From contig NZ_CP110636.1 of NCBI RefSeq assembly GCF_026153355.1, positions 2,418,001 through 2,482,000 of the forward strand: a stretch of 64,000 bases of DNA, in the 5' to 3' direction. Below the pieces are notes generated by a model that made no database searches, was not told the origin of the DNA, and saw only the letters and a program-made list of their open reading frames with translations. A program made the translations under genes and the position numbers. This document shows positions 22,659-42,807 of this stretch, in pieces. Position 1 is the stretch's first letter. Every line of letters begins with the position of its first letter. Source of the stretch: Streptomyces endophytica. Lineage in GTDB: Bacteria > Actinomycetota > Actinomycetes > Streptomycetales > Streptomycetaceae.

Positions 22659-23745
<1,087 letters not shown>

Positions 23746-23753
<8 letters not shown>

Positions 23754-25698
23754 TGATGGCCTCCTTAAAGACCTCCGCGAGCTGCTCGGCCTTGAACGGC
23801 ATTCCGCTGACCTGGGTGTGCGACCGCGCGTCGACGAGGTACTTGGCGCGCAGCAGGGTGGCGAGCTGTCCGAGGTTCATCTCCGGCACGATCACCTTGT
23901 CGTAACGCGCCAGCACCTCGCCGAGATTCCGCGGGAAGGGGTTGAGGTGGCGCAGATGGGCCTGCGCGATGCGCTCCCCTGCGCCCCGTACGCGCCGTAC
24001 CGCGGCGGTGATCGGGCCGTACGTCGAGCCCCAGCCCAGGACGAGGGTGCCGGCGCCGCGGCCGCCCTCGTCGGTGGGGTCGTCGACCTCGATGTCGGGG
24101 ACCTCGATGCCGTCCACCTTCGCCTGGCGGGTGCGCACCATGAAGTCGTGGTTGGCCGGGTCGTAGGAGATGTTGCCGGTGCCGTCCTGCTTCTCGATGC
24201 CGCCGATGCGGTGCTCCAGGCCCGGCGTGCCGGGGATGGCCCAGGGGCGCGCGAGGGTCTGCTCATCGCGCTTGTAGGGCCAGAACACCTCGGTGCCGTC
24301 CACCGCGACGTGGTTGGGGCCGGAGGCGAACTGCACGCGCAGGTCGGGGAGTTCGGCGACGTCGGGGATCCGCCAGGGCTCGGAGCCGTTGGCCAGGTAG
24401 CCGTCGGAGAGCAGGAAGACCGGGGTGCGGTACGTCAGCGCGATGCGGGCCGCCTCCAGTGCCGCGTCGAAGCAGTCGGCGGGCGTCCTGGGCGCCACGA
24501 TCGGCACCGGCGCCTCGCCGTTGCGCCCGTACATCGCCTGCAGCAGGTCGGCCTGCTCCGTCTTGGTCGGCAGACCCGTCGACGGGCCGCCGCGCTGGAT
24601 GTCGACGATCAGCAGCGGCAGTTCGAGGCTGACCGCGAGCCCGATGGTCTCGGACTTCAGGGCCACGCCCGGGCCGGAGGTGGTCGTCACCGCCAGCGAG
24701 CCGCCGAACGCCGCGCCCAGCGCCGCGCCGATGCCGGCGATCTCGTCCTCCGCCTGGAACGTCCGCACACCGAAGTTCTTGTGCTTGGACAGCTCGTGCA
24801 GGATGTCGGAGGCCGGGGTGATCGGGTACGAGCCCAGGTACAGCGGCAGATCGGCCTGCTGGGAGGCGGCGACCAGGCCGTAGGACAGCGCGAGGTTGCC
24901 GGAGATGTTGCGGTAGGTGCCGGTCGGGAACGCCTTGGTGGCCGGCGCGACCTCGTAGGAGACCGCGAAGTCCTCGGTCGTCTCGCCGAAGTTCCAGCCG
25001 GCCCGGAAGGCGGTGACGTTCGCCTCCGCGATGTCCGGCTTCTTGGCGAACTTGTCCCGCAGGAACTTCTCGGTGCCCTCGGTCGGACGGTGGTACATCC
25101 ACGAGAGCAGACCCAGCGCGAACATGTTCTTGCTGCGCTCGGCCTCCTTGCGGGAGAGCCCGAAATCCTTGAGCGCCTCGATGGTCAGCGTCGTCAGCGG
25201 CACCGGGTGGACGTTGTACGCCGAGAGCGAGCCGTCCTCCAGCGGGCTGGTCGCGTAGCCGACCTTCGCCATCGGGCGCTTGGTGAACTCGTCGGTGTTG
25301 ACGATGATCTCCGCGCCCCGCGGGACGTCCGGGAGGTTCGCCTTCAGCGCGGCCGGGTTCATCGCGACCAGGACGTTCGGAGCGTCACCGGGCGTGAGGA
25401 TGTCGTGGTCGGCGAAGTGCAGCTGGAAGCTGGAGACGCCGGGCAGGGTCCCGGCGGGGGCCCGGATCTCGGCGGGGAAGTTCGGCAGCGTCGACAGGTC
25501 GTTACCGAACGACGCCGTCTCCGATGTGAACCGGTCCCCGGTGAGCTGCATTCCGTCGCCGGAGTCACCGGCGAACCGGATGATCACCCGGTCCAGGCGC
25601 CGGACTTCTTTGCCCTCGCCGCCGCTGCCGGAGGAGCGCTGTCCCCCGACGAGCGCTGCGTCGGCCTGCTCGGCTGGGCTACTGACCTGGCTGGTCAC
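23746..25698 (-). CDS. korA: 2-oxoglutarate:ferredoxin oxidoreductase subunit alpha (gamma-alpha fusion)
   Basis: The 650-residue subunit fuses an N-terminal gamma domain (RVIIRFAGDSGDGMQLTG, about residues 35-220) to the pyrimidine-binding alpha domain (GNLALSYGLVAASQQ, YPITPASDILHEL, TTTSGPGVALKSE). A C-terminal domain II ends AEQLAEVFKEAIND, the arrangement of mycobacterial and streptomycete KorA. GTG 25698 is chosen: GGGAGG lies upstream and the true N-terminus TSQVSSPAEQAD is low-complexity, as in relatives. A longer frame to 25869 crosses the promoter region. It sits between the two nuo loci. Confidence 0.95.
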
Positions 25699-28503: not shown

Positions 28504-29769
28504 TCAGCGGCGTTTACGTGCCGGCTCCGGGCGGGTCCCGGACGCGGCCCGCCCGGCCCCGGAAGACGGCCCCGCGCCGGCGCCCGGCCGGGCCCGCCAG
28601 GGCAGTTCCGCGGTCACCCGGGTGGGGCCGCCGGCCGGTGAGCTCAGCAGGAAAAGCCCGTCCACCGACCCCAGCCGCTCGGCCAGCCCCGCCAGCCCGC
28701 TGCCGCCGTCCAGCCGCGCTCCGCCCGTCCCGTCGTCCACGACCTGGATCAGCAGCCGGTCCGCGGACCGCCACACCTCGACGGACGCCTGCCGGGCCGT
28801 GCTGTGCTTGGAGACGTTCTGCAGCAGCTCCGAGACGGTGAAGTACGCGATGCCCTCGATCGCCGGCGCGGGCCGCTCGGCCAGATCCACCGCCACCGTC
28901 GCCGGCACCGTGCAGCGCCCGGCCAGCGAGGCCAGGGCCGGCCCCAGCCCGCGGTCGGTCAGGATCGCCGGGTGGATGCCGCGGGCCAGGTCCCGCAGCT
29001 CCTGCAGCGCCAGCTTCACCTCGCCGTGCGCCTCGTCCACCATCGCCGCCACGGTCTCGTCGGCCTGCCCCTCCAGCAGTTTCTCCTTCGCCAGGCCCAG
29101 ACCCATCGCGAGCGCGACCAGCCGGGCCTGCGCACCGTCGTGGAGGTCCCGTTCGATACGCCGCAGATCGGCGGCCGCGGTGTCGGTGACCGTCATCCGG
29201 TCAGCCTCCAGTTCGGCGATCCGCCGCTCCAGCTCGTCCGAGGGCGACAGCAGTCCGCGCACCATCGCCCGGTCCACGTTCGCCAGCCCGCGCGCCACCC
29301 AGGGCAGCACCGGCCAGCCCACGAAGAGCGAGACCAGCACGACCGCGAAGGTGAGCACGGACCACGGCAGCCGGACGAACGCGAACAGCGCGTGCCGCCA
29401 GGCGACCGGGTCTTTCAGACCCGTCCACAACCACGGGAACACCCCCTGGTCGCGCGGACGCAGCGGGCTCGGCTCGGCGACCCGCACCCCGAGCAGCGCC
29501 CGCGCCCGGGCCCGCTCCAGCCTCCCGTACCGGCGGCACGCCTTCAGGCCGAGAGCCAGCAGCGGCAGACCGATGACGGTCACCGACAGCCCGGTGCCCA
29601 GCGTCAGCCACACCACCAGCACCGCGAACGCCGCGACGCCCAACGGCAAGTTGGCCAGCAGATGGCCGATCTCCCGCCAGGTCACGGCGTCGAACGGGGC
29701 GCGCGGCGGCGGAGGTGACACCTCGTCAGAGGTGTCGTCGGCGGCACGGGGTCGGGAACTCACGGTCAT
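28504..29769 (-). CDS. Two-component sensor histidine kinase (HisKA_3 type), second copy
   Basis: A 421-residue paralogue of the adjacent kinase: the same helix pairs (about 35-77 and 126-160), the same linker LERARARALLGV, and phospho-acceptor DLRRIERDLHDGAQARLV with His210. The ATPase motifs are SELLQNVSKHS, VVDDGTGG and GSGLAGLAERL. It lacks the ~50-residue extracytoplasmic insertion of the first copy, so the sensed signal may differ. It has a Gly/Ala/Arg-rich tail. ATG 29769 (MTVSSRPR) was preferred over the longer start at 29805. Motif copy B is 59 bases upstream. Confidence 0.92.
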   Translation of the reverse strand: MTVSSRPRAADDTSDEVSPPPPRAPFDAVTWREIGHLLANLPLGVAAFAVLVVWLTLGTGLSVTVIGLPLLALGLKACRRYGRLERARARALLGVRVAEPSPLRPRDQGVFPWLWTGLKDPVAWRHALFAFVRLPWSVLTFAVVLVSLFVGWPVLPWVARGLANVDRAMVRGLLSPSDELERRIAELEADRMTVTDTAAADLRRIERDLHDGAQARLVALAMGLGLAKEKLLEGQADETVAAMVDEAHGEVKLALQELRDLARGIHPAILTDRGLGPALASLAGRCTVPATVAVDLAERPAPAIEGIAYFTVSELLQNVSKHSTARQASVEVWRSADRLLIQVVDDGTGGARLDGGSGLAGLAERLGSVDGLFLLSSPAGGPTRVTAELPWRARPGAGAGPSSGAGRAASGTRPEPARKRR

Positions 29770-29828
29770 GCGCCCAGCCTGCCCGGCCGCGGCCCGCCGT
29801 GCCATGGGGTGGCCGGAGCAGGGGCGGT

Positions 29829-30067: not shown

Positions 30068-31222
30068 GTGGCGATGGCGCGGGGCGACGACGGCCTGGTA
30101 GTGACGCCGGAATCCGCCGTACGGCAGCCGGCTGACGCGGCGCCGCACACCACCGGCACGGTGGCCGCCTCCCTCGACGTCCGCGGCTGGGGTTGGGGCG
30201 ACCGCAGCAGGACGTGGACGGCGGCGACGTCGAGCGTGCTGCTCGCGGCGGTCGCCGGAGTCTGGGCGCACAGCTGGTTCGGGGACGGTGCCGCCCTGGT
30301 GGCCGGTATCGCCGCCGTCGTGGCCGCCGGGGCCGGAGCGGCCGTCGGTGCGCTCGCCGGGAGGGACGGACAGCGCGCCCCGGGTGCCGTACGGAGCGGG
30401 CAGCACGCCCCCGCGGCCGCCCTGTTGCTGCTCGGCGGCACCCTCGGGGTCACCGCCGCCTGGCAGGCCGCCCCTGGTGGCGGCGCCCGGCTCGCCGCCG
30501 TCGGCCTCACCGCCGCGGCCGTGCTCGCGCTCCTCGGACTCTGCACGGCCGCGGGCCGCGCCGCCCTGACGGGCGCCGCGTCGGTCGCGCTCGCGGTCGG
30601 CGCGTGGGAGCTGGGGCTGGCGCTGACCACCCCCGCCCGTACGGGAGTTGCGCTCGCCTTCGTCTCCGTACTGGTCCTCGGATACCTCCCCCGGCTCGCC
30701 CTGATGACGGCAGGGCTGACCCGGCTCGACGACCAGCGCTCCGGCGGCACCCCGGTCAGCCGCCACCAGGTGGGGGCCGCCCTCGGCGGCGCACACCGGG
30801 AGCTCTCCCTGGCCACGGTGGCGACGGCCGTCTCGGCGGGCGCGGGCGGGGTGCTCGCGGTGCAGACCCCCGGCCTGTGGACGGTGCTCGCAGCGCTGCT
30901 GCTGAGCGTCGTGCTGTGCTCGCGGGCGCGGGCGTACCCCCTGGCGGTGGAGGTCGTCGCGCTGCTCGCGGCCGGCCTCGCGACAGCCGTCCGGCTGATC
31001 CTGCTCTGGGCCACCGACGGCGGCGCCCCGGCGTTCGCGCTGGCCGCCCTCGGAGTGCTGGCGGTGCTGCCCGCCGTGGTCCCGGCGATACGGGTGCCGG
31101 AGCCGCTGCGCACCCGGCTGCGGCGCTGGCTGGACCTGGTCGAGTCGGTGAGCGTGGCGGCACTCATCCCGGTGGCCCTGGGCGCCTTCGGGCTCTACGG
31201 CCTCCTCTTCGGCGCGTCCTGA
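30068..31222 (+). CDS. EccD-like type VII secretion integral membrane protein (no ubiquitin-like domain)
   Basis: A 384-residue, very hydrophobic protein with about 11 helices, beginning near residue 55 (SSVLLAAVAGVWAHSWF) and ending FGLYGLLFGAS. The number of helices and the loop LGYLPRLALMTAGLTRLDDQ after helix 6 fit EccD, the 11-helix ring of the ESX/type VII secretion channel. The YukD/ubiquitin-like domain normally at the N-terminus is missing; only ~50 hydrophilic residues precede helix 1. GTG 30068 follows GGGAGGGG. It is followed 17 bases later by an EspI-like ATPase, the same neighbours as in mycobacterial ESX-1, but no EccB, EccC, EccE, mycosin or WXG100 gene is in this window. Confidence 0.72.
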   Translation: MAMARGDDGLVVTPESAVRQPADAAPHTTGTVAASLDVRGWGWGDRSRTWTAATSSVLLAAVAGVWAHSWFGDGAALVAGIAAVVAAGAGAAVGALAGRDGQRAPGAVRSGQHAPAAALLLLGGTLGVTAAWQAAPGGGARLAAVGLTAAAVLALLGLCTAAGRAALTGAASVALAVGAWELGLALTTPARTGVALAFVSVLVLGYLPRLALMTAGLTRLDDQRSGGTPVSRHQVGAALGGAHRELSLATVATAVSAGAGGVLAVQTPGLWTVLAALLLSVVLCSRARAYPLAVEVVALLAAGLATAVRLILLWATDGGAPAFALAALGVLAVLPAVVPAIRVPEPLRTRLRRWLDLVESVSVAALIPVALGAFGLYGLLFGAS

Positions 31223-31239
31223 CCCGGAGGGATGACGGC

Positions 31240-33795
31240 ATGTCGGCTTCGGGAGCGCCTACGGGCGGGCCTATGGGCGGGCCCACGGGGACGCTGGGGG
31301 ATGCGGGTGCGGGGGCGGACGGTCGCCCGCGGACGGATGCGCGTGCGGGAGCGGATGCGGGCTTGCGGACGGATGCGGGCACGTATCAGGGGACGGGGGC
31401 ACGGAGAGCCGGGGGAGCTGGGGGAGCGGGGGAGTACGGGGCCGGGACCGGATGGGAAGCAGGAGGGGACGTGGACGCGGTGACGAGGAGGGACGGGGCT
31501 GCGGGGGCGGGTAACGACGCCCTTCCGGCGGCCGGTTCCGGGCCGGCGGCTGGGTCCGGGCTGACGGCTGAATCCGGGCCGGTGGCTGAGTCCGGGCTGA
31601 TGGCGGAACAGCGGCCGGGGCAGAGCCAGGCGACTGCTGGCGGTCAGATGCCGAACGCTGGGCAGATGCCGAGCGGCGGACAGGCGTCGAACGGTGGTCA
31701 GGCGTCCAGCGGCGGTCAGATGCCGAACGACGGACAGATGCAGTTCGGCGGGCAGATGCAGTTCGGTGGCCAGGAGCCGGCCCGTGTCCAGGAGCCGGCC
31801 CGTGTCCAGGAGTCAGCCGGTGGCCAGGAGTCGGCCGGTGGCCAGGGGCCGGCCGGCGGGCAGGGATCGGCCGGGTGGCAGGTGTCGGGCGCCGCGGGTG
31901 CCGGGCCGATGCCGGCGCCGGCGCAGCCCGCCGTCCCCCTGGCGCAGCCCGCTGTCACCCTGGCGCAGCCCGCCGTCATCCCCTCGGCAGCCCCGGCGTC
32001 CCCGCAGGTACCCAGCGCACTCTCACAGGCACCCACCGCACCCCCGCAGGCGTCTGTGCCGGGGCCGATGCCGGCGGCCGGGGCGCTGGCCGCGCCGCCC
32101 GTCTACACCCCCACCCCCGTCCCAAGCCCCGCACCCACCTTCGCCCCCACCACCGACCAGGCCCCGGCTTCCGCGCCCGCGCCCGCTCCCGCGCCTGGCC
32201 GATACGGCCGGCCGGGGCCCGGGCTGCCGGCGCGGACGCCGGTCTCCGTGCCGCTGCTGCCGCCCGAACTGGCCGACGGCGGGCCGCGGCCGCGCCGTGG
32301 CGACCCGCTGGCCCGGCGTGCGGGCCGCGCGCTGCGCCGGGTGTTCGCCTCGTCCCCCGCCGCCGAGACGGCCGCCGTCACACAGGCCGCCCACGCCATC
32401 CAGCAGCCGGTGACGACCGGTCGGCAGATAGCCGTGTCGAGCATCCGTGGCGGCGCCGGCAAGTCCACCGTCGCCGCCCTCCTGGCGCTCACCTACGCCC
32501 ACTACCGGCCCGACCCCGTGCTCGCCGTGGAGGCCGACCCGGCGCTCGGCACGCTGCCGCACCGCCTGGGCGCCCGCGAGGTGCGCTGGTCCGGGACGGA
32601 CCTGGCACAGATCGTCGATCCGTCGATGCTGATCACCGACCTGACCGGCTATCTGCTGCCGTTCGCGGGCGGCGGCTGGCTGCTGCCCGGCAGCCAGGGC
32701 TCCATCGGCGCCCGCCTGGACCTCGACACCTACCGCATCGTGATGACCTCCCTGCGCCGGCACTTCGCGGCCACGGTGGTGGACTGCGAGACGCTGCCCG
32801 CCGAGGTGGCGCGGACGGCGCTGGTGACGACGCAGGCGCGGATACTGGTCACCCCGGCGACCCCGGAGGGCGTCGCGGCCACCCGTTCCGTACTCAACTG
32901 GGTCGGCGGGCTGCACCCCGGCCTGCTGCCCACCACGGTTGTCGTGCTCACGCACTCCTCGCCCGACAGCGGCGTCGACGTGCGCAAGGCCGCCGACCAC
33001 CTCGGAGCCGGTGGCGCGGCGGTGCTGCCGTTGCCGTACGACCGCCATCTGGCGGCCGGCGGCGCCATCCGCACCGAGCTGCTCGGGGAGCGGACCCGGG
33101 AGGCGGCGGCCCGGATCGCGGCCGAGGCGATGGACCGCGCGGTCTCCCGGGACCCGGTACGCCGACAGCACCAGGCCCGGCAGCCGGCCCACCAGCCGAG
33201 CCAGCCCGCCCACCAGCCGAGCCAGCCGGCCCACCAGCCCAGCCAGCCCGCCCATCAGCCCGCCCACCAGCCGAGCCACCCGGGCCAGCGGGCACAGCAG
33301 CCTGCCCACCAGCCGGGCCACCCGGACCACCAGCCGGGCCAGCAGCCGCAGCCGCAGCCGCAGAACGGGCAGCCGCAGCAGCCACAACCGCATCAGCCGC
33401 CAAGGGCACCTCACACCCAAGAGACACCGCAGGCCCACCAGGCATCCCACGCCCACCAGGCACCGCAGGCCCACCAGGCATCCCACGCCCACCAGGCGTC
33501 GCAGACCCACCAGGCGTCGCAGATCCAACACGCACCGCAGGCCCACCAGGCACCTCAAGCCCAACAGATGCCTCACCCGCATCCGGCGCCGTCTCAGCCG
33601 CAGCAAGCATCCCCGCCCCATCAACCGCCCCCGATGTACGCACCCCCGGCAGCGCCACCGGCCCAAGCCCCAGCCCCAGCCCAAGCCCAGGCCCAAGCTC
33701 AACCCCAGGCCCCGGCCGCAGCACCGGGTCCCGCTCCGGCGGCTCCCCCCGGCCCCGACCACCGCAGCCCCTTCGACGGCGGTCCGATCCGCTGA
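31240..33795 (+). CDS. EspI/MinD-like P-loop ATPase with long low-complexity tails
   Basis: An 851-residue protein. Residues 1-390 are low complexity (Gly/Gln/Met repeats, an AQPAV repeat, then Pro/Ala). A SIMIBI/MinD-type ATPase follows at about 390-640, with deviant Walker A SSIRGGAGKSTVAALLAL, VLAVEADPALGTLP and ATVVDCETLPAE. Residues 650-851 are a His/Gln/Pro-rich repeat tail (HQPSQPA, HQASHA units). A proline-rich head on a MinD-like ATPase next to EccD is the EspI pattern of ESX-1 loci, where it modulates secretion. Three other frames are open through the tails, a GC artefact. ATG 31240 has GGAGGG upstream. The C-terminal tail is unusual. Confidence 0.75.
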   Translation: MSASGAPTGGPMGGPTGTLGDAGAGADGRPRTDARAGADAGLRTDAGTYQGTGARRAGGAGGAGEYGAGTGWEAGGDVDAVTRRDGAAGAGNDALPAAGSGPAAGSGLTAESGPVAESGLMAEQRPGQSQATAGGQMPNAGQMPSGGQASNGGQASSGGQMPNDGQMQFGGQMQFGGQEPARVQEPARVQESAGGQESAGGQGPAGGQGSAGWQVSGAAGAGPMPAPAQPAVPLAQPAVTLAQPAVIPSAAPASPQVPSALSQAPTAPPQASVPGPMPAAGALAAPPVYTPTPVPSPAPTFAPTTDQAPASAPAPAPAPGRYGRPGPGLPARTPVSVPLLPPELADGGPRPRRGDPLARRAGRALRRVFASSPAAETAAVTQAAHAIQQPVTTGRQIAVSSIRGGAGKSTVAALLALTYAHYRPDPVLAVEADPALGTLPHRLGAREVRWSGTDLAQIVDPSMLITDLTGYLLPFAGGGWLLPGSQGSIGARLDLDTYRIVMTSLRRHFAATVVDCETLPAEVARTALVTTQARILVTPATPEGVAATRSVLNWVGGLHPGLLPTTVVVLTHSSPDSGVDVRKAADHLGAGGAAVLPLPYDRHLAAGGAIRTELLGERTREAAARIAAEAMDRAVSRDPVRRQHQARQPAHQPSQPAHQPSQPAHQPSQPAHQPAHQPSHPGQRAQQPAHQPGHPDHQPGQQPQPQPQNGQPQQPQPHQPPRAPHTQETPQAHQASHAHQAPQAHQASHAHQASQTHQASQIQHAPQAHQAPQAQQMPHPHPAPSQPQQASPPHQPPPMYAPPAAPPAQAPAPAQAQAQAQPQAPAAAPGPAPAAPPGPDHRSPFDGGPIR
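31636..31983 (+). repeat. Coding repeats in the N-terminal tail of the EspI-like ATPase
   Basis: A GGQ-(M/A/E)-(P/S) repeat covers 31636-31872, and three 21-base units encoding AQPAV(P/T/I)L-type heptapeptides follow at 31921-31983. Confidence 0.8.
33175..33580 (+). repeat. Coding His/Gln/Pro repeats in the C-terminal tail of the EspI-like ATPase
   Basis: Near-identical 21-base units (HQPSQPA) at about 33175-33310 and 30-base units (QAHQASHAHQ type) at about 33424-33575. They keep the frame, so copy changes would alter length without breaking the protein. Confidence 0.8.
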
Positions 33796-34060
33796 TCGGG
33801 ATCATCACCCGCGGCTTCGCCCTCCGAAGGCGTGGGCCCCGTGGACGCCCCGTTCGTCCGCTCCGTGAGACGGCTTCTGAGACAACCGGGCCCGCCGTCT
33901 ACGCTGCCAGCCGCCCAGGTAGGGCGAAGTACGGACAAGCTCACCGTCCGCGACGACGCGGCTTCTCGGGGCAGGCCGACCAGGGCCTAGACTCCGGTTC
34001 GTACAGATCACAAATCGTCGAAGTCGTTGAACAAGCGCAGTCAGGGAGCGAGGGGCGGAC

Positions 34061-34462
34061 GTGCCGGACGCGACCGTACGCACCACCGTCGCCGCGGACT
34101 ACTTCCAGGGCTACTCGGTCGTCGGGATCATCGCCGTAATCGGTGTGCTCTTCGTCGCCGTCGCCTTCGGGGCCGGGCGGCTGCTGCGGCCTGTCGTACC
34201 GACGCCCGAGAAGATGCTGACGTACGAGTGCGGCGTGGACCCGGTCGGCGAGGGCTGGGCGCACACCCAGGTCCGCTACTACGTCTACGCCTTCCTCTAC
34301 GTCATCTTCGCCGTCGACTCGATCTTCCTGTTCCCCTGGGCGACGGTCTTCGCCGCCCCCGGTTTCGGCGGCGCGACGCTCGTGGAGATGTTCATCTTCC
34401 TCGGCTTCCTCACCGTCGGCCTGCTCTACGCATGGAAGAAGGGCGTCCTGGAATGGACGTGA
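34061..34462 (+). CDS. nuoA: NADH-quinone oxidoreductase subunit A, second copy
   Basis: First gene of the second nuo module. The 133-residue, three-helix protein has [35 protein letters not shown], close to the conserved loop and second helix of NuoA with its Cys and acidic residues. GTG 34061 follows GGAGCGAGGGG. A TAGACT at 33988-33993 may be a -10 box. The gap 33796-34060 holds no gene. It overlaps nuoB by 10 bases. Confidence 0.94.
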
Positions 34463-35094
34463 CCCCCGCCGCCAACAGCTCCGCGGCCGCGGCCGGGGGC
34501 GCCGCACCGGAATTCCTCCCGGAGCCGCGCCGCCTGGGCACCCTGGCCCGGCTCGCGCCCGAACCGATGAAGGTGGTCCTCAACTGGGGCCGCCGCTACA
34601 GCCTGTGGGTCTTCAACTTCGGGCTGGCCTGCTGCGCGATCGAGTTCATCGCCGCCTCCATGGCGCGCCACGACTTCATCCGCCTCGGGGTGATCCCGTT
34701 CGCGCCCGGCCCGCGCCAGGCCGACCTGATGGTCGTCTCCGGCACGGTGACGGACAAGATGGCCCCGGCCGTCAAGCGCCTCTACGAGCAGATGCCCGAG
34801 CCCAAGTACGTCATCTCCTTCGGCGCCTGCTCCAACTGCGGCGGCCCCTACTGGGACTCGTACTCGGTCACCAAGGGCGTCGACCAGATCATCCCGGTCG
34901 ACGTGTACGTGCCGGGCTGCCCGCCGCGGCCGGAGGCGCTGCTCCAGGGCATCCTCAAGCTGCAGGAGAAGATCGCGCGCGAGTCCCTGGGGGAGCGGTA
35001 CGCACAAGGCGGCGCGGCCCGGCCTTCGGCGGCCGCTCTGCGTAGCGGCCTGGTGACGCCGCCCGCGCCGGCGCCCGCGGGGGAGGAGCCCTGA
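34453..35094 (+). CDS. nuoB: NADH-quinone oxidoreductase subunit B, second copy
   Basis: Carries cluster N2, the electron donor to quinone. The 213-residue protein keeps all four ligands: the adjacent Cys60-Cys61 in GLACCAIEF, Cys126 in [14 protein letters not shown] and Cys156 in [12 protein letters not shown]. About 20 extra residues precede the conserved core and ~35 follow it. ATG 34453 overlaps nuoA; a GTG at 34459 is possible. Intact ligands argue that this second complex is functional even though no NuoD partner is encoded in the module. Confidence 0.95.
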
Positions 35095-36536
35095 TGAGCG
35101 ACCAGCCCCAGCGGCCCGACCAGCCCCAGCGGCCCGATCAGCCTCAGCGGCCCGACCGGGCCCAGCAGCCCGATCAGCCCCAGCCGGCTGACCAGTCCGA
35201 GCAGCAGCCCGAGGCCGTCGCGCCGGTCGAGTCCGTGGAGTCCGTCGGCTCGGCCGACCCCTCCGACTCCTCCGGTTCCGCCGAACCCGTGGAACCCGTT
35301 GAGCCGGTCGTCGGGTGGCTGCCGCGGCCCGCGAGCGAGATCTTCGGCGCCGGCGCCACCGCGGAGCTGGCGTACGACCTGCTGACCGTCGACGTCCCGG
35401 TCGACGGCTGGCTCACCGCGCTGACCGCCGCCCGGGACGACCTCGGCTGCCGCTACTTCGACTGGCTCAGCGCCGTGGACGAGCCCGGCACCGGCTTCCG
35501 TATCTGCGCGCACCTCGCGGACGTCGCCCGCCCGGGCACCGTCCACCGCCTGGTCGTGCGGACCACGGTGCCGCACGACGCGGCCACGCTGCCCACCGCC
35601 GTCGGCGTGTACGCGGGCGCGGGCTGGCACGAGCGGGAGACGCACGAGATGTTCGGCGTCGACTTCACCGGCCACCCCCATCTCGTCCCGCTGCTCCTCC
35701 CGGAGGGCTTCGAGGGCCACCCGCTGCGCAAGGACTTCGTGCTGGCGGCCCGGGTGGCCAAGGCGTGGCCGGGGGCCAAGGAGCCGGGCGAATCGGAGCA
35801 CGGCGGGCCCAAGCGCCGGCAGATGCTGCCGCCGGGCGTTCCCGACCCGAACGAGTGGGGTCCGCTGAAGGGCCAGCTGCCGCCCGCGCCGGCACGTCCG
35901 GCACGGGGTGCGCGGGCGGCCGGCGGCGCGGCGGGCGAGCGTCCGGCGCGGCGTACGCGGTCGGTGAGTGCGGGCTCGGCCAGCCAGCAGGCGGCCCAGG
36001 CCGCGCCGTCCGGGGCTTCCGCGGCCCCGGAGGCAGCGGAAGCACCGGCGGCTCCGGCGCGCGCCGAGCGGCCGGCCCGCCGTACCCGGTCCGCGAGCCA
36101 GGGTTCGGCCAGCCAGCAGCAGCCGGCGGAACCGGCAGCGCCCCCGGCGACCACCGAACCATCGGCGACCACCGAGCCTCCGGCGAACGTCCAACGTCCG
36201 GCGAAGGTCGAACCTCCGGCGAACACCAAGGCACCCGAGGCACCCGAGGCACCCGAGGCACCCGAGGCTCCGGCGGCCCCGCGCTCCTCCGACGCACCGT
36301 GGCACCACGCCCGCCCGGCCTTCGACGAGCCGCAGAAGCAGGCCGAGCCCGAGCCCAAGCGGGAGCCGGAGCCGGAAGCCAAGCCCGAGCCGCAGGCCAA
36401 GCCCGAGCCCGAGCCGCAGGCCGAGCCCGAGCCGCGGCAGAAGCCCGAGCCCGCCCCCGAGGCGCAGGCCGAGTCCGAGCCCGCCCCCGAGACGCAGCCG
36501 CAGAACCACGACCCGGCAGGAGGCGACACCCCATGA
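35094..36536 (+). CDS. nuoC: NADH-quinone oxidoreductase subunit C, second copy, with long disordered tails
   Basis: The conserved 30-kDa subunit domain spans about residues 75-225: [40 protein letters not shown] and [12 protein letters not shown]. It is not fused to NuoD. The N-terminal ~70 residues are DQPQRP repeats and acidic Ser/Glu runs. The C-terminal ~230 residues are Pro/Ala/Glu-rich repeats, making it 480 residues where actinobacterial NuoC is usually near 240. The ATG overlaps the nuoB stop (TGATG), and the stop overlaps the nuoH ATG. The tails may act as tethers or docking arms (inference). Confidence 0.93.
35100..35171 (+). repeat. 18-bp coding tandem repeat at the start of nuoC2
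   Basis: Four 18-base units encode D-Q-P-Q-R-P type hexapeptides; the first two are identical (35100-35117, 35118-35135) and the last two diverged. Confidence 0.85.
36231..36266 (+). repeat. 9-bp coding tandem repeat in the nuoC2 tail
   Basis: GCACCCGAG is repeated four times without mismatch and encodes Ala-Pro-Glu; further imperfect units flank it. Confidence 0.9.
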
Positions 36537-37501
36537 GCGACGCGCTCGACATCGCGCTGCGCCTCATCGCCGTCTTCGTCGTGTTCCTGGTGTTCCCGCT
36601 GGTCATCGGGCAGACCGAGCACAAGGTCATGGCCCATATGCAGGGCCGGCTCGGTCCGATGTACGCGGGCGGGTTCCACGGCTGGGCGCAGCTGGTCGCC
36701 GACGGCGTGAAGTTCGCGCAGAAGGAAGACATCGTGCCGGCCGGCGCCGACCGGCGGATCTTCCAGCTCGCCCCGGCCGTCGCCCTGCTGCCGTACCTCC
36801 TGGTCCTGGTCGCCATCCCGATAGGGCCGCACAACGCCGTCGGGCAGGCCCTGGACGCGGGCATCTTCTTCGTCCTCGCCGTCATGGGCGTCGGCGTGCT
36901 CGGCTCGCTGATGGCCGGCTGGGCCTCGGCGAACAAGTTCTCGCTGCTCGGCGCCCTGCGGACGGCCGCGCAGCTGCTCGCGTACGAGCTGCCGATGCTG
37001 CTCGCCGCGGCCTCCGTCGCGATGGCGGCCGGCACGCTCTCACTGCCCGGCATCGTCGAGGCGTTCCACTGGTGGTGGGTGCCGTGGCAGATCGTCGGCG
37101 GCCTGGTGTTCTTCACCGCGGGCCTCGCCGAGCTGCAGCGGCCGCCGTTCGACATGCCGGTCGCCGACTCGGAGATCATCTTCGGTGCGTACACCGAGTA
37201 CACCGGCCTGCGGTTCGCCCTCTTCCTGCTCGCCGAATACGCGGGCATCGTCGTCCTCTGCGCGCTGACCTCGGTGCTCTTCCTGGGTGGCTGGCACGGC
37301 CCGTTCGGCGCCGACGGCCTGGGCTGGCTGTGGACGCTGCTGAAGACCGCGCTGCTCGCCTTCGGCGTCATCTGGCTGCGGGTCACCTACCCGCGGCTGC
37401 GCGAGGACCAGCTGCAGAAGCTCGCCTGGACGGTGCTCATCCCGCTCGCGCTCGCCCAGATCGCCGTCACCGGCGTCGTCAAGGTGGTGATCTCGTCATG
37501 A
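36533..37501 (+). CDS. nuoH: NADH-quinone oxidoreductase subunit H, second copy
   Basis: A 322-residue membrane protein with about eight helices. It has the NuoH/HyfC-family signature [21 protein letters not shown] after helix 1 and [18 protein letters not shown] in the quinone-facing loop. Compared with the first copy in this window, that loop has lost the PESEGDL acidic pattern (VADSEI instead), and the short C-terminus lacks the proline-rich tail. ATGA overlaps occur at both ends. The altered loop may mean a different quinone pocket or coupling behaviour (inference). Confidence 0.95.
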
Positions 37502-38088
37502 GCTTCCCCGGTTCCGGTCTCGCCAAGGGCCTGGCCGTCACCCTGCGGACGATGACGAAGCGTTCCGTCACCGCGCAGTACCCGGACGTCCAGCCCGACC
37601 TCGCGCCGCGCACCCGCGGCGTCATCGGGCTGTTCGAGGAGAACTGCACGGTCTGCATGCTGTGCGCCCGCGAGTGCCCCGACTGGTGCATCTACATCGA
37701 CTCCCACAAGGAGACCGTGCCGCCGGCCGCGCCCGGGGGCCGTGAGCGCAGCCGGAACGTGCTCGACCGCTTCGCCATCGACTTCGCGCTGTGCATGTAC
37801 TGCGGGATCTGCATCGAGGTCTGCCCCTTCGACGCGCTCTTCTGGTCACCGGAGTTCGAGTACGCCGAGACGGACATCCGTGACCTCACCCACGAGCGCG
37901 ACAAGCTCCGCGAGTGGATGTGGACGGTGCCCGAGCCGCCGGCGCTCGACCCGGCGGCCGAGGAGCCCAAGGAGATCGCCGCCGCCCGTAAGGCCGCGGA
38001 CAAACTCGCCGCCCAGCAGGCGGCCGAGGCCGCGGCGCAGCACGAGAACCAGAACGAGAACCCGAACACCGAGGAGGAGGGGACGTGA
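37498..38088 (+). CDS. nuoI: NADH-quinone oxidoreductase subunit I, second copy
   Basis: A 196-residue ferredoxin-like subunit with two [4Fe-4S] motifs, [12 protein letters not shown] (Cys50/53/56/60) and [12 protein letters not shown] (Cys99/102/105/109), plus one extra cysteine at 64 (DWCIYI). The C-terminal ~45 residues are Ala/Gln/Glu/Asn-rich. It is clearly diverged from the first nuoI in this window. Start overlaps nuoH2 (ATGA), stop overlaps nuoJ2 (GTGA). Confidence 0.95.
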
Positions 38089-38714
38089 CGCTCGCCGCCA
38101 CGGCCGCCGGGCACGGCTTCCTGTCGCCCACCGGCGTCGAGATCGCGTTCCTGCTCGTCGGCATCGGCACCCTGGGGGCGGCCGTCATCACCGTCACCAC
38201 CCGGCAGCTGGTGCACGCCGCCCTCTGGCTGGTCGTCGCGCTCGGCGGGGTCGCGGTCGAATACCTCCTGCTCACGGCCGAGTTCATCGCCTGGGTGCAG
38301 GTGCTCATCTACGTCGGTTCCGTGGTCGTCCTGCTGCTCTTCGGGCTGATGCTGACCAAGGCGCCCATCGGGCACTCCCCGGACGCCGATTCCGGCAACC
38401 GCTGGGCCGCGCTCGTGGTCGCGCTCGCCGCGGCCGCCGCCCTGGTCTGGGTCGTCGTCGACGCCTTCCGCGCCACCTGGATCGACTTCGGCGGGGCCGT
38501 CCAGGGCTCCACCGAGGCCTCGGGGCGCAGCCTCTTCCAGTACTGGGTGCTGCCCTTCGAAGCGCTGTCCGTGCTGCTGCTCGCCGCGCTCGTCGGGGCG
38601 ATCGTGCTGTCCCGCAGGGGCGGTGAGGGCAGGGCCCCGGCGGCCGCCCTGAAGGACGGCGCGGCCCGCGTCTTCGCAGCCCCCGCCACCGCCCCACGAG
38701 AGGAGCAGCGCTGA
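38085..38714 (+). CDS. nuoJ: NADH-quinone oxidoreductase subunit J, second copy
   Basis: A 209-residue protein with five helices, including the family stretch [21 protein letters not shown]. It is close to the usual bacterial length and lacks the 115-residue tail of the first copy. GTG 38085 overlaps the nuoI2 stop; the nuoK2 ATG overlaps its TGA (TGATG). Confidence 0.94.
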
Positions 38715-39082
38715 TGCACCTCGCCTATCCGGCCGTCCTCGCCGTCCTCCTCTTCTGCACCGGTCTGTACGGCGTGCTCGCCCGCCGCAACGCGATCCTG
38801 GTGCTGATGTCCGTCGAGCTGATGCTCAACGCCGTCAACCTCAACCTCGTCGCCTTCGACGTCTGGCTGCGCGACACCCTGCACGCGGGCCAGGCGCTCA
38901 CCCTCTTCACCATCGCCATCGCCGCCGCCGAGATCGGCATCGGCCTGGCGATCGTGCTGCTCGTCTACCGCAACCGCGGCAGCTCCGACATCGACCGGCT
39001 CCGTGACCTCGCCGAGCGGCCGGACGGCACCGACGCCGACGGGACCCCGCAGCCGGACACCAAGGCGGAGGCCACCGCGTGA
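38714..39082 (+). CDS. nuoK: NADH-quinone oxidoreductase subunit K, second copy
   Basis: A 122-residue three-helix protein with [20 protein letters not shown] and its membrane glutamate, and [17 protein letters not shown] with the second glutamate. About 25 extra hydrophilic residues end the protein. It overlaps nuoJ2 (TGATG) and nuoL2 (GTGA). Confidence 0.95.
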
Positions 39083-41075
39083 CCCTCACGACCACCGCCG
39101 TTCTCGTTCCCCTCCTGCCCTTCCTCGGGGCCGTCGCCGGCCTCCTCCTGGGGCGGCGCGCGCCCGGTTTCGTCCGGCCGCTGGCCGTGCTGCCGACGCT
39201 CGCCGCGGCCGGGCTGACCATCGTGGTCGCCGTCGGCCAGGGCGGTGGCCCGGCCACCGACGTCGCCACCCGGCTCACCCCGACCGGGTCGGTCCCGATC
39301 GACCTGGCGCTGCACATCGACGGCTTCGCCGCGCTGATCGCCGTCGTCGTCGGTGTCGTGGCGACCTGTGTGCAGATCTACTCCACCGGCTATCTGCGCG
39401 ACGACCCGCGCTACCCCTCCTACGCGGCCCTGGTCTCGCTCTTCACCGCCGCGATGCTGCTGGTCGTCTACACCGGCGACCTGATGGTGCTGCTGGTCGG
39501 CTGGGAAGTCATGGGCATCTGCTCGTACTTCCTCGTCGGCCACTACTGGGAGACCGAGACCGCCCGGGCCGCCTCCCTCAAGGCGTTCCTGGTCACCAAG
39601 CTCGGCGACGTCCCCTTCCTCTTCGGCATCTTCGCGCTGGCCGCCGACACCGGCACCTTCCGCATCACCGGCATCCTCGGCTCGGTCGCCAACCGCGGCC
39701 TGGACCACCCGACGCTGATCGCGCTGCTGCTGCTGGCCGGCGTCGCGGGCAAGTCCGCGCAGTTCCCGCTGCACACCTGGCTCCCGGACGCGATGGCCGG
39801 CCCGACCCCGGTCTCCGCGCTGATCCACGCCGCGACGATGGTGGCCGCCGGTATCTACGTCGTCGCCCGCCTCCTCCCGGTCTTCGCGGCCTCCGCGGCC
39901 GCGCTGGTCGTGATGGCCGTCATCGCCGCGATCACCATGGTCGGCTCCGGCCTCGCCGCGCTGGCCCAGGACGACATCAAGCGGGTGCTGGCCTATTCGA
40001 CGGTCGGCCAGCTCGGCTACATGCTGGGCGCGCTCGCCGTCGGCGACCGCGGCGCCGCCGTCTTCCACCTCCTTGCGCACGGTGCGTTCAAGGCCCTCCT
40101 CTTCCTCGGCGCGGGCGTGATCATCCACGCCGCGGGCACCAACTCGCTCGCCGCCATGTCCCGGATGAGCGGCCTCTCCCGGCGCATCCCGGACGCCTAC
40201 TGGACCGTGACCGTCGCGCTGCTCGCGCTCGCCGCGATCCCGCCGTTCGCCGGCTTCTTCTCCAAGGAAGCCGTCCTCGGCGCCGCCGAGCACGCCGCGA
40301 CCGGCGCCGCCCACGGCATCCCCGGCGCGGCCGGCTGGACCGTCCTGGTCTCCGGACTGCTCACCGCCCTCCTCACCGCGGCCTACGCCGCCCGCCTGTG
40401 GCTGCTCGCCTTCAAGGGCCGGGGCGTCGAGGTCCCCGACCACGGCCCGCAGCCGGTCGTCATGAACGCCGTCCTGTGGGTGCTCTTCATCCCGACCGTC
40501 GCACTGGGCCTTACCGCTCCCCTCCTGCCCAAGTGGTTCGACGGGCGCTCGCTGGCTCCGACCCTGACCACCGCCGTCCTCGGCACCGGCATCGCCGTCG
40601 TCGGCGGCCTGGTCACCTACGCCACCTGGCGCCACACCACCGCGCTCGCCGCCCGCACCCCCATCGGCGCGGTCGTCGTCGACGCGGACGCGGCCCCCGG
40701 CCTCGCCGAGGAGACGGCCATCGCCACCCACGCCCCGGTCTACGGTGACAACGCCGGCGCCGCGGACCCGGCCGACCCGGCCGCCTCCTCCTCGGCCCGC
40801 TGCACCGCCACGCGGCCGTCGGCTTCCACCTGGACGCCCTCTACTCCGCGCTCTTCGTCCGGCCCGTACGCGCCGCCGCCACGCTCGTCCGCTTCCTGGA
40901 CCGCGAGGTCGTCGACACCTACGTCCGCGGTGCGGGCACCGCCCCGCGTTGGCTGGGCGCCGCCGTCCGCCGCGCCCAGACCGGGAACGTGCAGACCTAC
41001 CTCGGCGCGCTGCTGGCCGGATCCCTCGTCCTGGCCATCGCCGCTGTCCTCGTCGCCACGGGCACGGGAGCCTGA
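39079..41075 (+). CDS. nuoL: NADH-quinone oxidoreductase subunit L, second copy (frameshifted near the 3' end)
   Basis: About 665 residues after repair. The helix [39 protein letters not shown] and [12 protein letters not shown] are intact. The main frame reads to about 40785; the expected NuoL ending ([19 protein letters not shown], then a final helix [19 protein letters not shown]) lies in the -1 frame and stops at 41075. One missing C near 40783-40792 explains it. If the shift were real, the last helix that anchors the lateral arm would be lost. GTG 39079 overlaps nuoK2. The next 97 bases are non-coding. Confidence 0.9.
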
Positions 41076-41172
41076 CCGTGCTGACATCCCCCGGGGGCCG
41101 ACCCCCGTACCCCAGCCGAGAGACCACGTGGCCTGCCTCGCCGGAGCCGAAACCCGCAGGAGGGCCTGAACC

Positions 41173-42807
41173 GTGAATCACACCGCCATGCAGTTCCTCC
41201 TCGTGGGCGTCGTCGTCCTCCCCCTCCTCGGCGCGCTCGCCGCGCTGCTGCCCGCGCCGCCCGGCCTGAAGGGCAAGAACCCCGACCAGGCCGTCCTGCG
41301 CCACGGCGTGACCGTCACCGGCGTCGTGCTCGCCGCCACCGTCGCACTGGCCGCCGGCTTCGACCACGCTCAGCCGGCGCGTATGCAGGCCACCACCGAC
41401 ATCAGCTGGATCCCGGCGCTCGGCATCCGTATCCACCTCGGCGTCGACGGCATCTCGCTCCCCCTCGTCGTCATGACCGCGCTGCTGACCTTCCTCTGCG
41501 CGCTCTACTCCTACTTCCACATGCCAACGGGCCCGTCTCCCAAGGCATTTGTGGCCCTGCTGCTCGTCCTGGAGGCCGGCACCCTCGCCACCTTCGCCGT
41601 CCTGGACCTGATGCTCTTCTTCCTCGCCTTCGAGATGGTCCTCATCCCGATGTACTTCCTCATCGCCCGCTGGGGCGGTGCGGGGAAGCAGGCGGCGGCC
41701 TGGAAGTTCATCCTCTACACGCTGCTCGGCTCCGTCGTGATGCTGCTCGGCCTCCTCCTCATCGGCGTGAAATCCGGCACGTTCGACATGGTCGCACTCG
41801 CCACTGACAACGGCCCGAAAGCCCAGCTCAGCCACACCGTCCAGCTCCTCGCGGTGCTCGCGATCGGCATCGGACTGGTCGTCAAGTCCCCGATGTGGCC
41901 GCTGCACAGCTGGCTGCCCGACGCGCACACCGCCGCCCCCACCGTCGGCTCGGTGCTGCTGGCCGGCGTCCTGCTGAAGATGGGCACCTACGGGTTCGTA
42001 CGGATCGCGTTGCCCATCACCCCCGAGGGCATGCACACCTACGCGCCCTACCTCGCCGCGTTCGCCGCCGTCGGCATCATCTACGGCTCGCTCGCCTGCC
42101 TCGCCCTCGTCCGCAAGGGCGCCAAGGGCGACCTCAAGCGCCTGATCGCCTACAGCTCCGTCGGCCACATGGGGTTCGTCCTGCTCGGCATCGCCAGCAT
42201 GACCCCCACCGGCGTCAACGGCGCCCTGTTCGCCAACATCGCGCACGGCCTGATCACCGGCCTGCTGTTCTTCCTCGTCGGCGCCCTCAAGGACCGCTAC
42301 GGCACCACCGACCTCGACGCCCTGGCCGGCACCACCGGCGCCGCCCTCTACGGCAAGGCCCCCCGCTTCGGCGGCCTGCTCGCCTTCGGGGCCGTCGCCT
42401 CGCTCGGCCTGCCCGGACTCGCCGGCTTCTGGGGCGAGATGCTCGCCATGTTCGGCGCCTTCCGGCCCGCCGCCGGCCTGAGCCGCCCGGCCTTCCTGAC
42501 CTTCATGGTGCTGGCCGGCCTCGGCACCCTGCTGACCGCCGCGTACCTGCTCCTCGTCGTCCGCCGGGTCTGCATGGGCGGCACCCCGCACCTCGCCCCC
42601 ACCGCCCCGCTCGGCGCCGACGGCGACCCGGAACGGCCCGCCGCGGAGGCGCCCGCCCCCGCCCCGGCCGTCCCCGACCTCGCGCGCTACGAGTACGCGG
42701 CCTGGTCCCCCCTGGCCGCCCTCACCGTCCTCGCCGGACTGTGGCCGGCGGCCCTCCTCGGCCTCACCGACCCGGCCGTCCAGCAGCTCCTCGGAGGCGG
42801 TAAGTGA
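41173..42807 (+). CDS. nuoM: NADH-quinone oxidoreductase subunit M, second copy
   Basis: A 544-residue antiporter-like subunit with LGVDGISLPLVVM, FFLAFEMVLIPMYFLIARWG (glutamate), VVKSPMWPLHSWLPDAHTAAPT (lysine) and AYSSVGHMGFVLLGIAS. GTG 41173 follows AGGAGGG. Its stop overlaps the nuoN2 start. The Pro/Ala-rich loop around residues 475-500 is longer than usual. Confidence 0.96.
   Translation: MNHTAMQFLLVGVVVLPLLGALAALLPAPPGLKGKNPDQAVLRHGVTVTGVVLAATVALAAGFDHAQPARMQATTDISWIPALGIRIHLGVDGISLPLVVMTALLTFLCALYSYFHMPTGPSPKAFVALLLVLEAGTLATFAVLDLMLFFLAFEMVLIPMYFLIARWGGAGKQAAAWKFILYTLLGSVVMLLGLLLIGVKSGTFDMVALATDNGPKAQLSHTVQLLAVLAIGIGLVVKSPMWPLHSWLPDAHTAAPTVGSVLLAGVLLKMGTYGFVRIALPITPEGMHTYAPYLAAFAAVGIIYGSLACLALVRKGAKGDLKRLIAYSSVGHMGFVLLGIASMTPTGVNGALFANIAHGLITGLLFFLVGALKDRYGTTDLDALAGTTGAALYGKAPRFGGLLAFGAVASLGLPGLAGFWGEMLAMFGAFRPAAGLSRPAFLTFMVLAGLGTLLTAAYLLLVVRRVCMGGTPHLAPTAPLGADGDPERPAAEAPAPAPAVPDLARYEYAAWSPLAALTVLAGLWPAALLGLTDPAVQQLLGGGK

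What the first reader, a model, noticed from the sequence alone, without database searches (positions are those of the whole stretch)
30068..33795. Orphan EccD/EspI-like pair next to the second complex I
An 11-helix EccD-like protein without its ubiquitin-like domain is followed by a MinD-type ATPase with a proline-rich head, the same two neighbours found in mycobacterial ESX-1 loci. None of EccB, EccC, EccE, mycosin or WXG100 is present. The pair could be a stripped-down membrane platform with a different job.
Basis: partly seen in the sequence, partly recalled or inferred. Interest (0 to 1): 0.65.

Follow-up and report, generated by a model that had tools for sequence, protein, structure and literature searches.

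The report
Secretion-system remnant: EccD plus ATPase
Some Streptomyces keep just two genes, a membrane protein and its partner ATPase, from a once complete type VII secretion system beside their second complex I, and similar two-gene or ATPase-only leftovers occur elsewhere in the genus, which suggests that this pair does something useful without the rest of the machine.

Summary
Window 30074-31222 encodes an EccD with eleven predicted membrane helices and no ubiquitin-like (Ub-like) domain; 31240-33795 encodes a MinD/ParA-type ATPase like EspI. Neighbourhoods show a cut-down remnant. In S. pinistramenti and S. natalensis a complete ESX locus of this kind (EccC, DUF6507, DUF6177, WXG100-type genes) sits at the same kinase/nuoA2 site and nests among the pair-bearing strains on the best trees. 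So the flanking genes were lost, probably more than once.

Orphan pairs occur in five more of 392 genomes and one named genome; at one of these sites relatives carry the full locus. Eight genomes keep the ATPase alone. EccC has no clear orphan.

The Ub-like domain, which touches EccC in ESX-3, is lost or cut in 22 of 31 orphan EccDs and in 0 of 58 with ESX neighbours. The orphan ATPase is strongly constrained (dN/dS 0.015-0.167), so simple decay is unlikely.

Likely mechanism (inferred): the ATPase docks, ATP-dependently, on EccD's cytosolic loops as a stand-alone membrane switch. nuo2 is near-universal without the pair, so a complex I role is unlikely. New variant of a known kind; function unproven.

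The parts
30074..31222 (+). EccD-like membrane protein, 382 aa, 11 predicted membrane helices, ubiquitin-like domain lost (alternative start GTG 30068)
   Evidence: PF19053 74.4 bits, no YukD; AlphaFold2 model; EccD3/EccD5 Z 19.8-22.3
30710..30772 (+). Conserved cytosolic loop TM6-TM7 of the EccD-like protein; candidate docking site (inference)
   Evidence: Mean conservation 0.86 in 26 nuo2-pair rows, 0.82 in ESX rows, measured over residues 208-234; coordinates
30920..30955 (+). Most conserved cytosolic loop, TM8-TM9, with two invariant Arg; candidate docking site (inference)
   Evidence: Mean conservation 0.93 in pair rows, 0.87 in ESX rows, measured over residues 283-295; coordinates
31240..33795 (+). 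EspI-like MinD/ParA-type ATPase, 851 aa
   Evidence: fold MinD Z 24.6; homologue beside eccD in a Nocardia plasmid ESX locus
31240..32376 (+). Ala/Gly/Pro-rich repetitive head of the ATPase
   Evidence: Tandem repeats, composition
32377..33171 (+). ATPase core; P-loop RGGAGKST 32446-32469, EADPALG 32530-32550, VVDCETLP 32776-32799
33172..33792 (+). His/Gln/Pro-rich repetitive tail of the ATPase
33981..33995 (+). Conserved promoter-like motif upstream of nuoA2, kept between the ATPase gene and nuoA2
   Evidence: In 34 of 37 upstream regions of pair, full and empty sites; 1 match in window, 0.01 expected
28504..29805 (-). Sensor kinase, left border of the insertion site
   Evidence: PF13796, PF07730; lies beside nuoA2 with no gene called between in 26 of 27 sites without the pair
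34061..34462 (+). nuoA2, right border of the insertion site
   Evidence: PF00507 110.5 bits

Best explanation
The pair is the retained core of a complete ESX (type VII secretion) locus that once sat between a sensor-kinase gene and nuoA2. WXG100-type genes, DUF6507, a large protein, EccC and DUF6177 were lost; EccD and its partner ATPase were kept under purifying selection. With EccC gone, the ubiquitin-like domain of EccD that contacts EccC lost its use and was deleted repeatedly. Well supported: origin, constraint, domain loss; more than one reduction is likely but not forced at this one site. Inferred: the ATPase binds ATP, dimerises like MinD and docks on the conserved cytosolic loops (TM6-7, TM8-9) of an EccD dimer. 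There it works as an ATP-state-dependent membrane switch, most likely the same regulatory or gating step that EspI performs in an ESX machine, now free of secretion. The output (a lipid or small molecule in the EccD cavity, or a signal to the envelope or to the canonical ESX) is open. My confidence in the origin is about 0.9; in a retained function about 0.8; in this mechanism about 0.3.
For: (1) Same-site complete ESX loci in S. pinistramenti (L071/L089) and S. natalensis (L090). (2) EccD tree: 26 pair rows plus these 2 full rows form one clade (SH-aLRT 100), full rows nested; ATPase tree: L071 pairs with the pair-bearer L088 (96); kinase plus NuoABC tree: 22 pairs plus 2 full one clade (99), all 27 empty sites outside. 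(3) Kinase beside nuoA2 in 26 of 27 sites without the pair. (4) Off-site orphan pairs in 5 of 392 genomes plus L131, 5 changes on the ATPase tree, at least 4 forced by starred branches; L156 and L159 share three to five flanking genes with full ESX loci L032, L122 and L124, a second site with both states. (5) ATPase without EccD in 8 genomes, one with an in-frame deletion scar of EccD. (6) ATPase dN/dS 0.015-0.167 in 12 overlapping nuo2-pair comparisons, like NuoB2/NuoH2/NuoL2; EccD 0.19-0.48, like the neighbouring kinase SKa. (7) P-loop present in all 130 ATPase matches that reach it, of 132 loci, duplicates included. (8) Ub-like domain lost or cut in 22 of 31 orphans, 0 of 58 rows with ESX neighbours; 7 changes. 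(9) In ESX-3 the EccD Ub-like domains contact the EccC DUF, and the EccD dimer encloses a hydrophobic cavity (PMC6986878, passages). (10) M. tuberculosis EspI lowers ESX-1 secretion when ATP is low (stated in PMC11302016 and PMC6979476, passages).
Against: No expression, interaction or phenotype data. Well-supported branches alone force only 1 change of the nuo2-pair state on the EccD tree, 2 on the ATPase tree and 1 on the kinase-Nuo tree, so a single reduction there is not excluded. EccD itself is only moderately constrained, no more than the kinase. Orphan ATPases with no EccD exist (8 genomes), so EccD is not always needed. Other ESX genes can be orphans too: DUF6177 hits occur far from any EccD. 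Sister-pair test of EccC loss with Ub-like loss is underpowered (4 pairs, median p 0.5; this run counted four Microbacteriaceae rows as lost). The nuo2-pair ATPase is not significantly more constrained than in full loci (p 0.14), and lone ATPases are a little less so (0.16-0.31). No deletion scars found in 22 nuo2-pair loci. The signature Lys of the MinD P-loop (recalled) is Arg here, so MinD-like dimerisation is unproven. The window ATPase is not the reciprocal best match of the Nocardia EspI-position protein.
Confidence: 0.65

Rival explanations
1. The pair still serves type VII secretion: it works in trans with the EccC and other parts of the canonical ESX locus (C1:177 kb on), for example as a spare or regulatory EccD-EspI.
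For: The genome has a separate ESX locus with EccD, an EccC-like gene and WXG100-size genes, and an EspI-type ATPase at C1:204 kb near it. EspI regulates secretion in M. tuberculosis (PMC11302016, passages). Six of the 16 surveyed nuo2-pair genomes also hold a second EccD match in a full-type locus or at a contig end.
Against: The Ub-like domain that contacts EccC in ESX-3 is gone in 17 and cut in 2 of 26 nuo2-pair EccDs. Ten of the 16 show no second EccD match of this kind and no DUF6177. The canonical EccD lies on the far side of a very long branch.
Confidence: 0.17
2. A non-functional relic on its way out, kept so far by chance.
For: Flanking genes are gone, the EccD domain was lost repeatedly, EccD evolves moderately fast, and further loss to the ATPase alone occurs. 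A decayed ESX locus exists in S. philanthi.
Against: ATPase dN/dS 0.015-0.167 over a clade in which EccD identity to the window falls to 57%; no stop inside any of the 16 nuo2-pair EccDs of the survey; P-loop kept; the same two genes kept at several sites; 29 ATPases without EccC (31 less two at contig ends) but no clear EccC without the ATPase.
Confidence: 0.13
3. The pair is an accessory of the second complex I (assembly, energy sensing or regulation).
For: It lies directly upstream of nuoA2 on the same strand in the nuo2-linked loci whose contigs reach that far, and ESX genes stand next to nuoA2 also in S. gossypii, S. chumphonensis and sp. 549, outside the pair clade.
Against: nuo2 is present in 59 of 61 genomes, and 27 of the 30 best-scoring nuo2 loci have no pair; a promoter-like motif is kept right upstream of nuoA2 with or without the pair; no nuo gene was recognised near the off-site pairs.
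Confidence: 0.07

Closest known systems
EccD of mycobacterial ESX systems (EccD3, EccD5)
   Same: Eleven-helix membrane fold, Z 19.8-22.3 over 309-344 residues; sequence profile hit E 5e-8 to EccD3.
   Different: No Ub-like domain and no EccC, EccB or EccE beside it; scores 35.6 against the 94.95 cut-off of the T7SS_EccD equivalog.
EspI-type MinD/ParA ATPase of ESX loci
   Same: Adjacent to eccD, Pro-rich low-complexity head, MinD fold; homologous (30.7% over 89%) to the ATPase next to eccD in a Nocardia plasmid ESX locus.
   Different: Order eccD-espI is reversed; second, not first, match of that Nocardia protein in this genome (E 6.7e-26 against 1.6e-51); P-loop has Arg in place of the signature Lys (the Lys rule is recalled); long repetitive tail.
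The Streptomyces ESX locus with EccC and DUF6177 (L071, L090 and others)
   Same: Likely source: same two genes in the same order, same site in two species.
   Different: WXG100-type genes, DUF6507, large protein, EccC and DUF6177 are missing in the window, and EccD has lost its Ub-like domain.
MinD, FleN, BcsQ and Ssd/CpaE-like ATPases
   Same: Fold; best NCBIfam match is the actinobacterial CpaE homologue Ssd at 42 bits.
   Different: Far below the curated cut-off (154 for Ssd); the neighbour is an EccD, not a septum or pilus protein.

Membership tests
EccD | EccD transmembrane domain (PF19053) | tested here: met
   74.4 bits, cut-off 30; structure Z up to 22.3
EccD | N-terminal ubiquitin-like (YukD) domain | tested here: not met
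   No YukD hit up to E 1; 1.0 bit in a custom profile that gives over 60 bits in 54 of 58 rows with ESX neighbours, training rows included
EccD | NCBI T7SS_EccD equivalog cut-off | tested here: not met
   35.6 of 94.95 bits
EspI | MinD/ParA-type ATPase with P-loop | tested here: met
   RGGAGKST P-loop; MinD Z 24.6; Pfam CbiA itself is below its cut-off (18.8 of 25.4)
EspI | Next to eccD | tested here: met
   Window; the related locus in Nocardia has the ATPase before eccD
EspI | Reciprocal best match with an EspI-position protein of an ESX locus | tested here: not met
   The Nocardia protein's best match is the ATPase at C1:204817 near the canonical locus
EspI | Lowers ESX secretion at low ATP | not testable with these tools
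   Stated for M. tuberculosis in PMC11302016 (passages)
Type VII secretion system | EccC motor ATPase at the locus | tested here: not met
   No EccC of this type in the genome at E 1e-40; only EccD and the ATPase were called between the kinase and nuoA2
Type VII secretion system | WXG100 substrates at the locus | tested here: not met
   No such gene called between the kinase and nuoA2 in the window; two small genes of that kind stand at the same site in L071 and L090; of L071's, one has a WXG100 match of 21 bits, under the 27.3 cut-off, and the other none
Complex I operon | Conserved with nuo2 across genomes | tested here: not met
   59 of 61 genomes have nuo2; 27 of the 30 best-scoring nuo2 loci lack the pair

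The most novel reading that the evidence does not exclude
Type VII secretion loci contain a separable two-part machine, an EccD membrane dimer driven or gated by an EspI-type ATPase, that is useful without any secretion motor or substrate. Streptomyces has freed this module from full ESX loci several times, and in some lineages has gone further to the ATPase alone. EccD with EspI would then have its own job, for example an ATP-state switch on a lipid-filled membrane cavity, also inside complete ESX machines.
Probability: 0.35. Interest if true: 0.75.

Novelty: new variant of a known kind. Interest (0 to 1): 0.57.

Why it matters
What EspI does, and what the large EccD cavity is for, are open questions of type VII secretion. 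Streptomyces supplies a natural deletion series at one genomic site: empty, full ESX, pair with Ub-like domain, pair without it; and, at other sites, the ATPase alone. This makes it possible to ask in harmless laboratory strains what EccD and EspI do without a motor. It also gives an evolutionary reading of which EccD domain serves EccC.

Tried and rejected
Complex I accessory: rejected as the main reading because nuo2 is near-universal without the pair and keeps its own promoter-like motif. Defence system: no PADLOC hit for either protein. Recent insertion of a ready-made pair: disfavoured because complete ESX loci sit at the same site and nest among the pairs on the best trees; one loss plus two regains is as short by plain counting (3 changes) but needs insertion on both sides of the pair twice. 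Deletion scars of EccC, WXG100-type and other genes in 22 nuo2-pair loci: none at E 0.01. Stronger constraint on the orphan ATPase than in full loci: not significant (p 0.14). Conserved cytosolic rather than periplasmic face of orphan EccD: not borne out overall (0.73 against 0.76); only loops 6 and 8 stand out. Shared flanks of off-site orphans with full loci: found for L156 and L159, three genes for L151, one each for L131, L177 and L175, none for the other eight. Print: no listed title or abstract start names an orphan EccD-EspI pair in Streptomyces; the lists were capped at 12-20 where more papers matched. Passages were seen of PMC6986878, PMC11302016, PMC6979476 and PMC4791881. Subscription papers are mostly not held. 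Gene starts come from my own simple caller, which missed two EccDs (L068, L098) that tblastn found (for L068; for both).
Full report
WHAT IS THERE. Two genes lie between a sensor-kinase gene (28504-29805, minus) and nuoA2 (34061, plus). The first, 30074-31222, is a 382-residue membrane protein that passes Pfam's EccD transmembrane model (74.4 bits, cut-off 30) and shows no ubiquitin-like domain. Its predicted structure has eleven long helices and aligns with EccD3 and EccD5 at Z 19.8-22.3; the next unrelated entry is at Z 9.4. The second, 31240-33795, is an 851-residue protein with a MinD/ParA-fold ATPase core (Z 24.6) between a repetitive Ala/Gly/Pro-rich head and a His/Gln/Pro-rich tail. The genome is a Streptomyces close to S. 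nigrescens HEK616 (97% identity in the first protein). It holds one other EccD with a Ub-like domain, in a separate ESX locus.

WHERE ITS RELATIVES LIVE. In 81 related genomes the first protein has a match in 15, all in the same genus. In 392 genomes of the genus it matches in 127. Of the 11, six have their ATPase match within 460 bases of the start of another contig of the same genome, one (G255) has it on another contig, two more in G048 abut a contig start, and two (G145, G167) lie on contigs of 4-5 kb. The 23 include 15 nuo2-linked pairs, 5 orphan pairs at other sites, two loci with EccC but no DUF6177 nearby (L178, L179) and one at a contig end. A sixteenth nuo2-linked pair, in G048, is split by a contig break.

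THE SAME SITE IN THREE STATES. In S. pinistramenti (L071, again as L089) and S. natalensis (L090) the kinase-nuoA2 gap holds a complete ESX locus of this kind: two small WXG100-type genes, DUF6507, a large protein, EccD, ATPase, EccC, DUF6177 (labels in L090 by blastp). In L071, Pfam confirms EccC (FtsK/SpoIIIE 228.7 bits), DUF6507, DUF6177 and the Ub-like domain of EccD (62.7 bits); one small gene has a WXG100 match of 21 bits, under its 27.3 cut-off, the other none. Of 26 distinct pair loci, 22 including the window show kinase, EccD, ATPase and nuoA2 in one stretch; the other four (L023, L085, L091, L105) end at a contig end and are placed by the kinase next door. Four (L023, L024, L066, L075) have one more gene before EccD, an RDD-type membrane protein where scanned. 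In 27 sampled genomes with neither, the kinase lies beside nuoA2 with no gene called between in 26; in L197 no kinase gene was called within the stretch. Streptomyces sp. 549, S. gossypii and S. chumphonensis also carry ESX genes next to nuoA2, with EccD, ATPase, EccC and DUF6177; no WXG100-type gene was seen in the S. chumphonensis stretch. They fall outside the pair clade, so the link to nuo2 probably predates the reduction.

HISTORY. On a quick tree of the EccD membrane part (92 rows), the 26 nuo2-linked pairs and the two same-site full loci form one clade with SH-aLRT support 100, the full ones nested inside. On the ATPase tree L071 joins the pair-bearer L088 (96). A tree of the neighbouring kinase and NuoA, B, C (54 rows) again puts 22 pairs and the two full loci in one clade (99), with all 27 empty sites outside. 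The best trees need three changes of the pair state: three losses of the flanking genes, or one loss and two regains. Well-supported branches alone force one, two and one changes on the three trees, so repeated loss at this site is likely, not proven.

THE PATTERN IS NOT LIMITED TO THIS SITE. Five genomes of 392 (G093, G316, G321, G340, G347) and the named Streptomyces sp. HPF1205 (L131) keep an EccD-ATPase pair elsewhere, without EccC in the stretch examined. On the ATPase tree these six need 5 changes, at least 4 forced by well-supported branches. G316 and G321 share one site; there three to five flanking genes (63-99% identity in the cases printed) match those of the full ESX loci L032, L122 and L124, so a second site shows both states. 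Eight genomes keep the ATPase with no EccD (L168-L175). In one of them (L168) about 18 residues of the start and 13-15 of the end of EccD are still there, joined in frame: a clean deletion scar. Among 142 strong ATPase matches, 31 have no EccC within 6 kb: 16 nuo2-linked, 5 off-site pairs, 8 alone, 2 at contig ends. Among 116 EccC matches, 5 have no strong ATPase match within 6 kb: two are at contig breaks, one is a second copy with an ATPase fragment beside it (a 91-bit row), and two (G145, G167) lie on other contigs than their EccD. Against a special status of the pair: DUF6177 also occurs far from any EccD.

SELECTION. Pairwise dN/dS of the ATPase core is 0.015-0.167 in 12 comparisons of nuo2-linked pairs; some share a row, so they are not independent. 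In the same comparisons NuoB2 gives 0-0.32, NuoH2 0.017-0.24, NuoL2 0.056-0.33, EccD 0.19-0.48, and the neighbouring kinases 0.23-0.50 (SKa) and 0.27-0.72 (SKb). Between the two same-site full loci the ATPase gives 0.16. Other full-type ATPases give 0.10-0.19 (8 comparisons), lone ATPases 0.16-0.31 (3), an off-site pair of pairs 0.20 and L168 against L177 0.11. The difference between six sister comparisons of pairs and the eight of full loci is not significant (p 0.14). The P-loop (RGGxGK, HGGxGK in three) is present in 130 of 132 ATPase loci, duplicates included; the other two are partial matches that do not reach it, L181 (cut by the stretch) and L139, from the decayed S. philanthi locus.

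THE LOST DOMAIN. The profile was built from 14 full-type rows, which therefore score high by construction. Among 58 EccDs with EccC or WXG100-type genes beside them (in four, L107, L115, L130 and L132, EccC was not seen in the stretch) 54 score over 60 bits; the other four, from Microbacteriaceae, score 40-51 bits and I count them as intact. In 26 nuo2-linked pairs the domain is intact in 7, half left in 2 and gone in 17; in 5 off-site pairs it is intact in 2 and gone in 3. A sixth off-site pair, L177, is intact. Lost or cut: 22 of 31 orphans against 0 of 58, with 7 changes on the tree. The Fisher p of 5e-14 ignores relatedness; a sister-pair test had only 4 usable pairs. The losses differ in form: new start after the domain (window, L063-L065), internal deletion with a leader kept (L068, apparently also L069, L070), and loss of the first half only (L073, L074). 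In the ESX-3 structure these domains touch the EccC DUF, and the EccD dimer encloses a hydrophobic cavity whose cargo, if any, is unknown (PMC6986878, passages). Losing the domain after losing EccC fits.

HOW IT MAY WORK. Shown: fold of both parts by prediction, nucleotide-site sequence, shared retention, constraint. Inferred: the ATPase binds ATP and docks on EccD's cytosolic side. Loops TM6-7 and TM8-9 are the best conserved in both orphan and ESX forms. In M. tuberculosis EspI turns ESX-1 down when ATP is low (PMC11302016, passages), so an ATP-state switch on EccD is the simplest shared function. It would be freed here from secretion. The sequence does not tell the output.

EspI OR NOT. The ATPase is homologous to the MinD/ParA protein between espG and eccD in a Nocardia plasmid ESX locus (30.7% identity over 89%). 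That protein's best match in this genome is an ATPase near the canonical ESX locus (E 1.6e-51); the window protein comes second (E 6.7e-26). So: same family and same neighbour, but a separate subfamily, not a strict orthologue.

VERDICT. The reading as an orphan platform is refined to a reduced ESX locus whose EccD-ATPase core is kept by selection, a reduction that also happened at other sites. New variant of a known kind; the function needs a bench test.

Noticed in passing
window 34061-44336 and 22659-25698: The second complex I has no NuoD: NuoC2 carries only the 30 kDa domain, and NuoD-type matches in the genome lie at C1:2413404 and C1:1552046, outside this operon. Two-subunit 2-oxoacid:ferredoxin oxidoreductase genes lie close by, so ferredoxin may be the electron donor (inference).
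   Followed up: partly
window 33981-33995: CAGGGCCTAGACTCC lies upstream of nuoA2; its core is kept in 34 of 37 upstream regions of pair, full and empty sites and may be a promoter or regulator site of nuo2. It is altered in L071, where the full ESX locus stands.
   Followed up: partly
L139 (S. philanthi bv. triangulum): An ESX locus of the same kind is broken into fragments (EccD, ATPase and EccC in pieces), as expected for genome reduction in a symbiont (its lifestyle is recalled).
   Followed up: no
L024 8323-9033, L023, L066, L075: Proteins with a repetitive Gln/Gly/Pro/Tyr-rich head before EccD in some pair loci; the L024 one is an RDD-family membrane protein (78.5 bits), the others are its relatives by blastp. 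Similar genes occur near some full ESX loci.
   Followed up: no
L211 (Mycolicibacterium sp. CBMA 213 plasmid) 7183-8385: An ATPase of this family without annotated ESX genes in the 17 kb shown, so lone members may exist outside Streptomyces too.
   Followed up: no
L156, L159 against L032, L122, L124: A second genomic site where relatives carry either the full ESX locus or only the EccD-ATPase pair, by shared flanking genes.
   Followed up: partly
genus survey, DUF6177 (PF19674): Many strong DUF6177 matches lie far from any EccD of this kind, some several in one genome; no paper in the library holds the term DUF6177.
   Followed up: no
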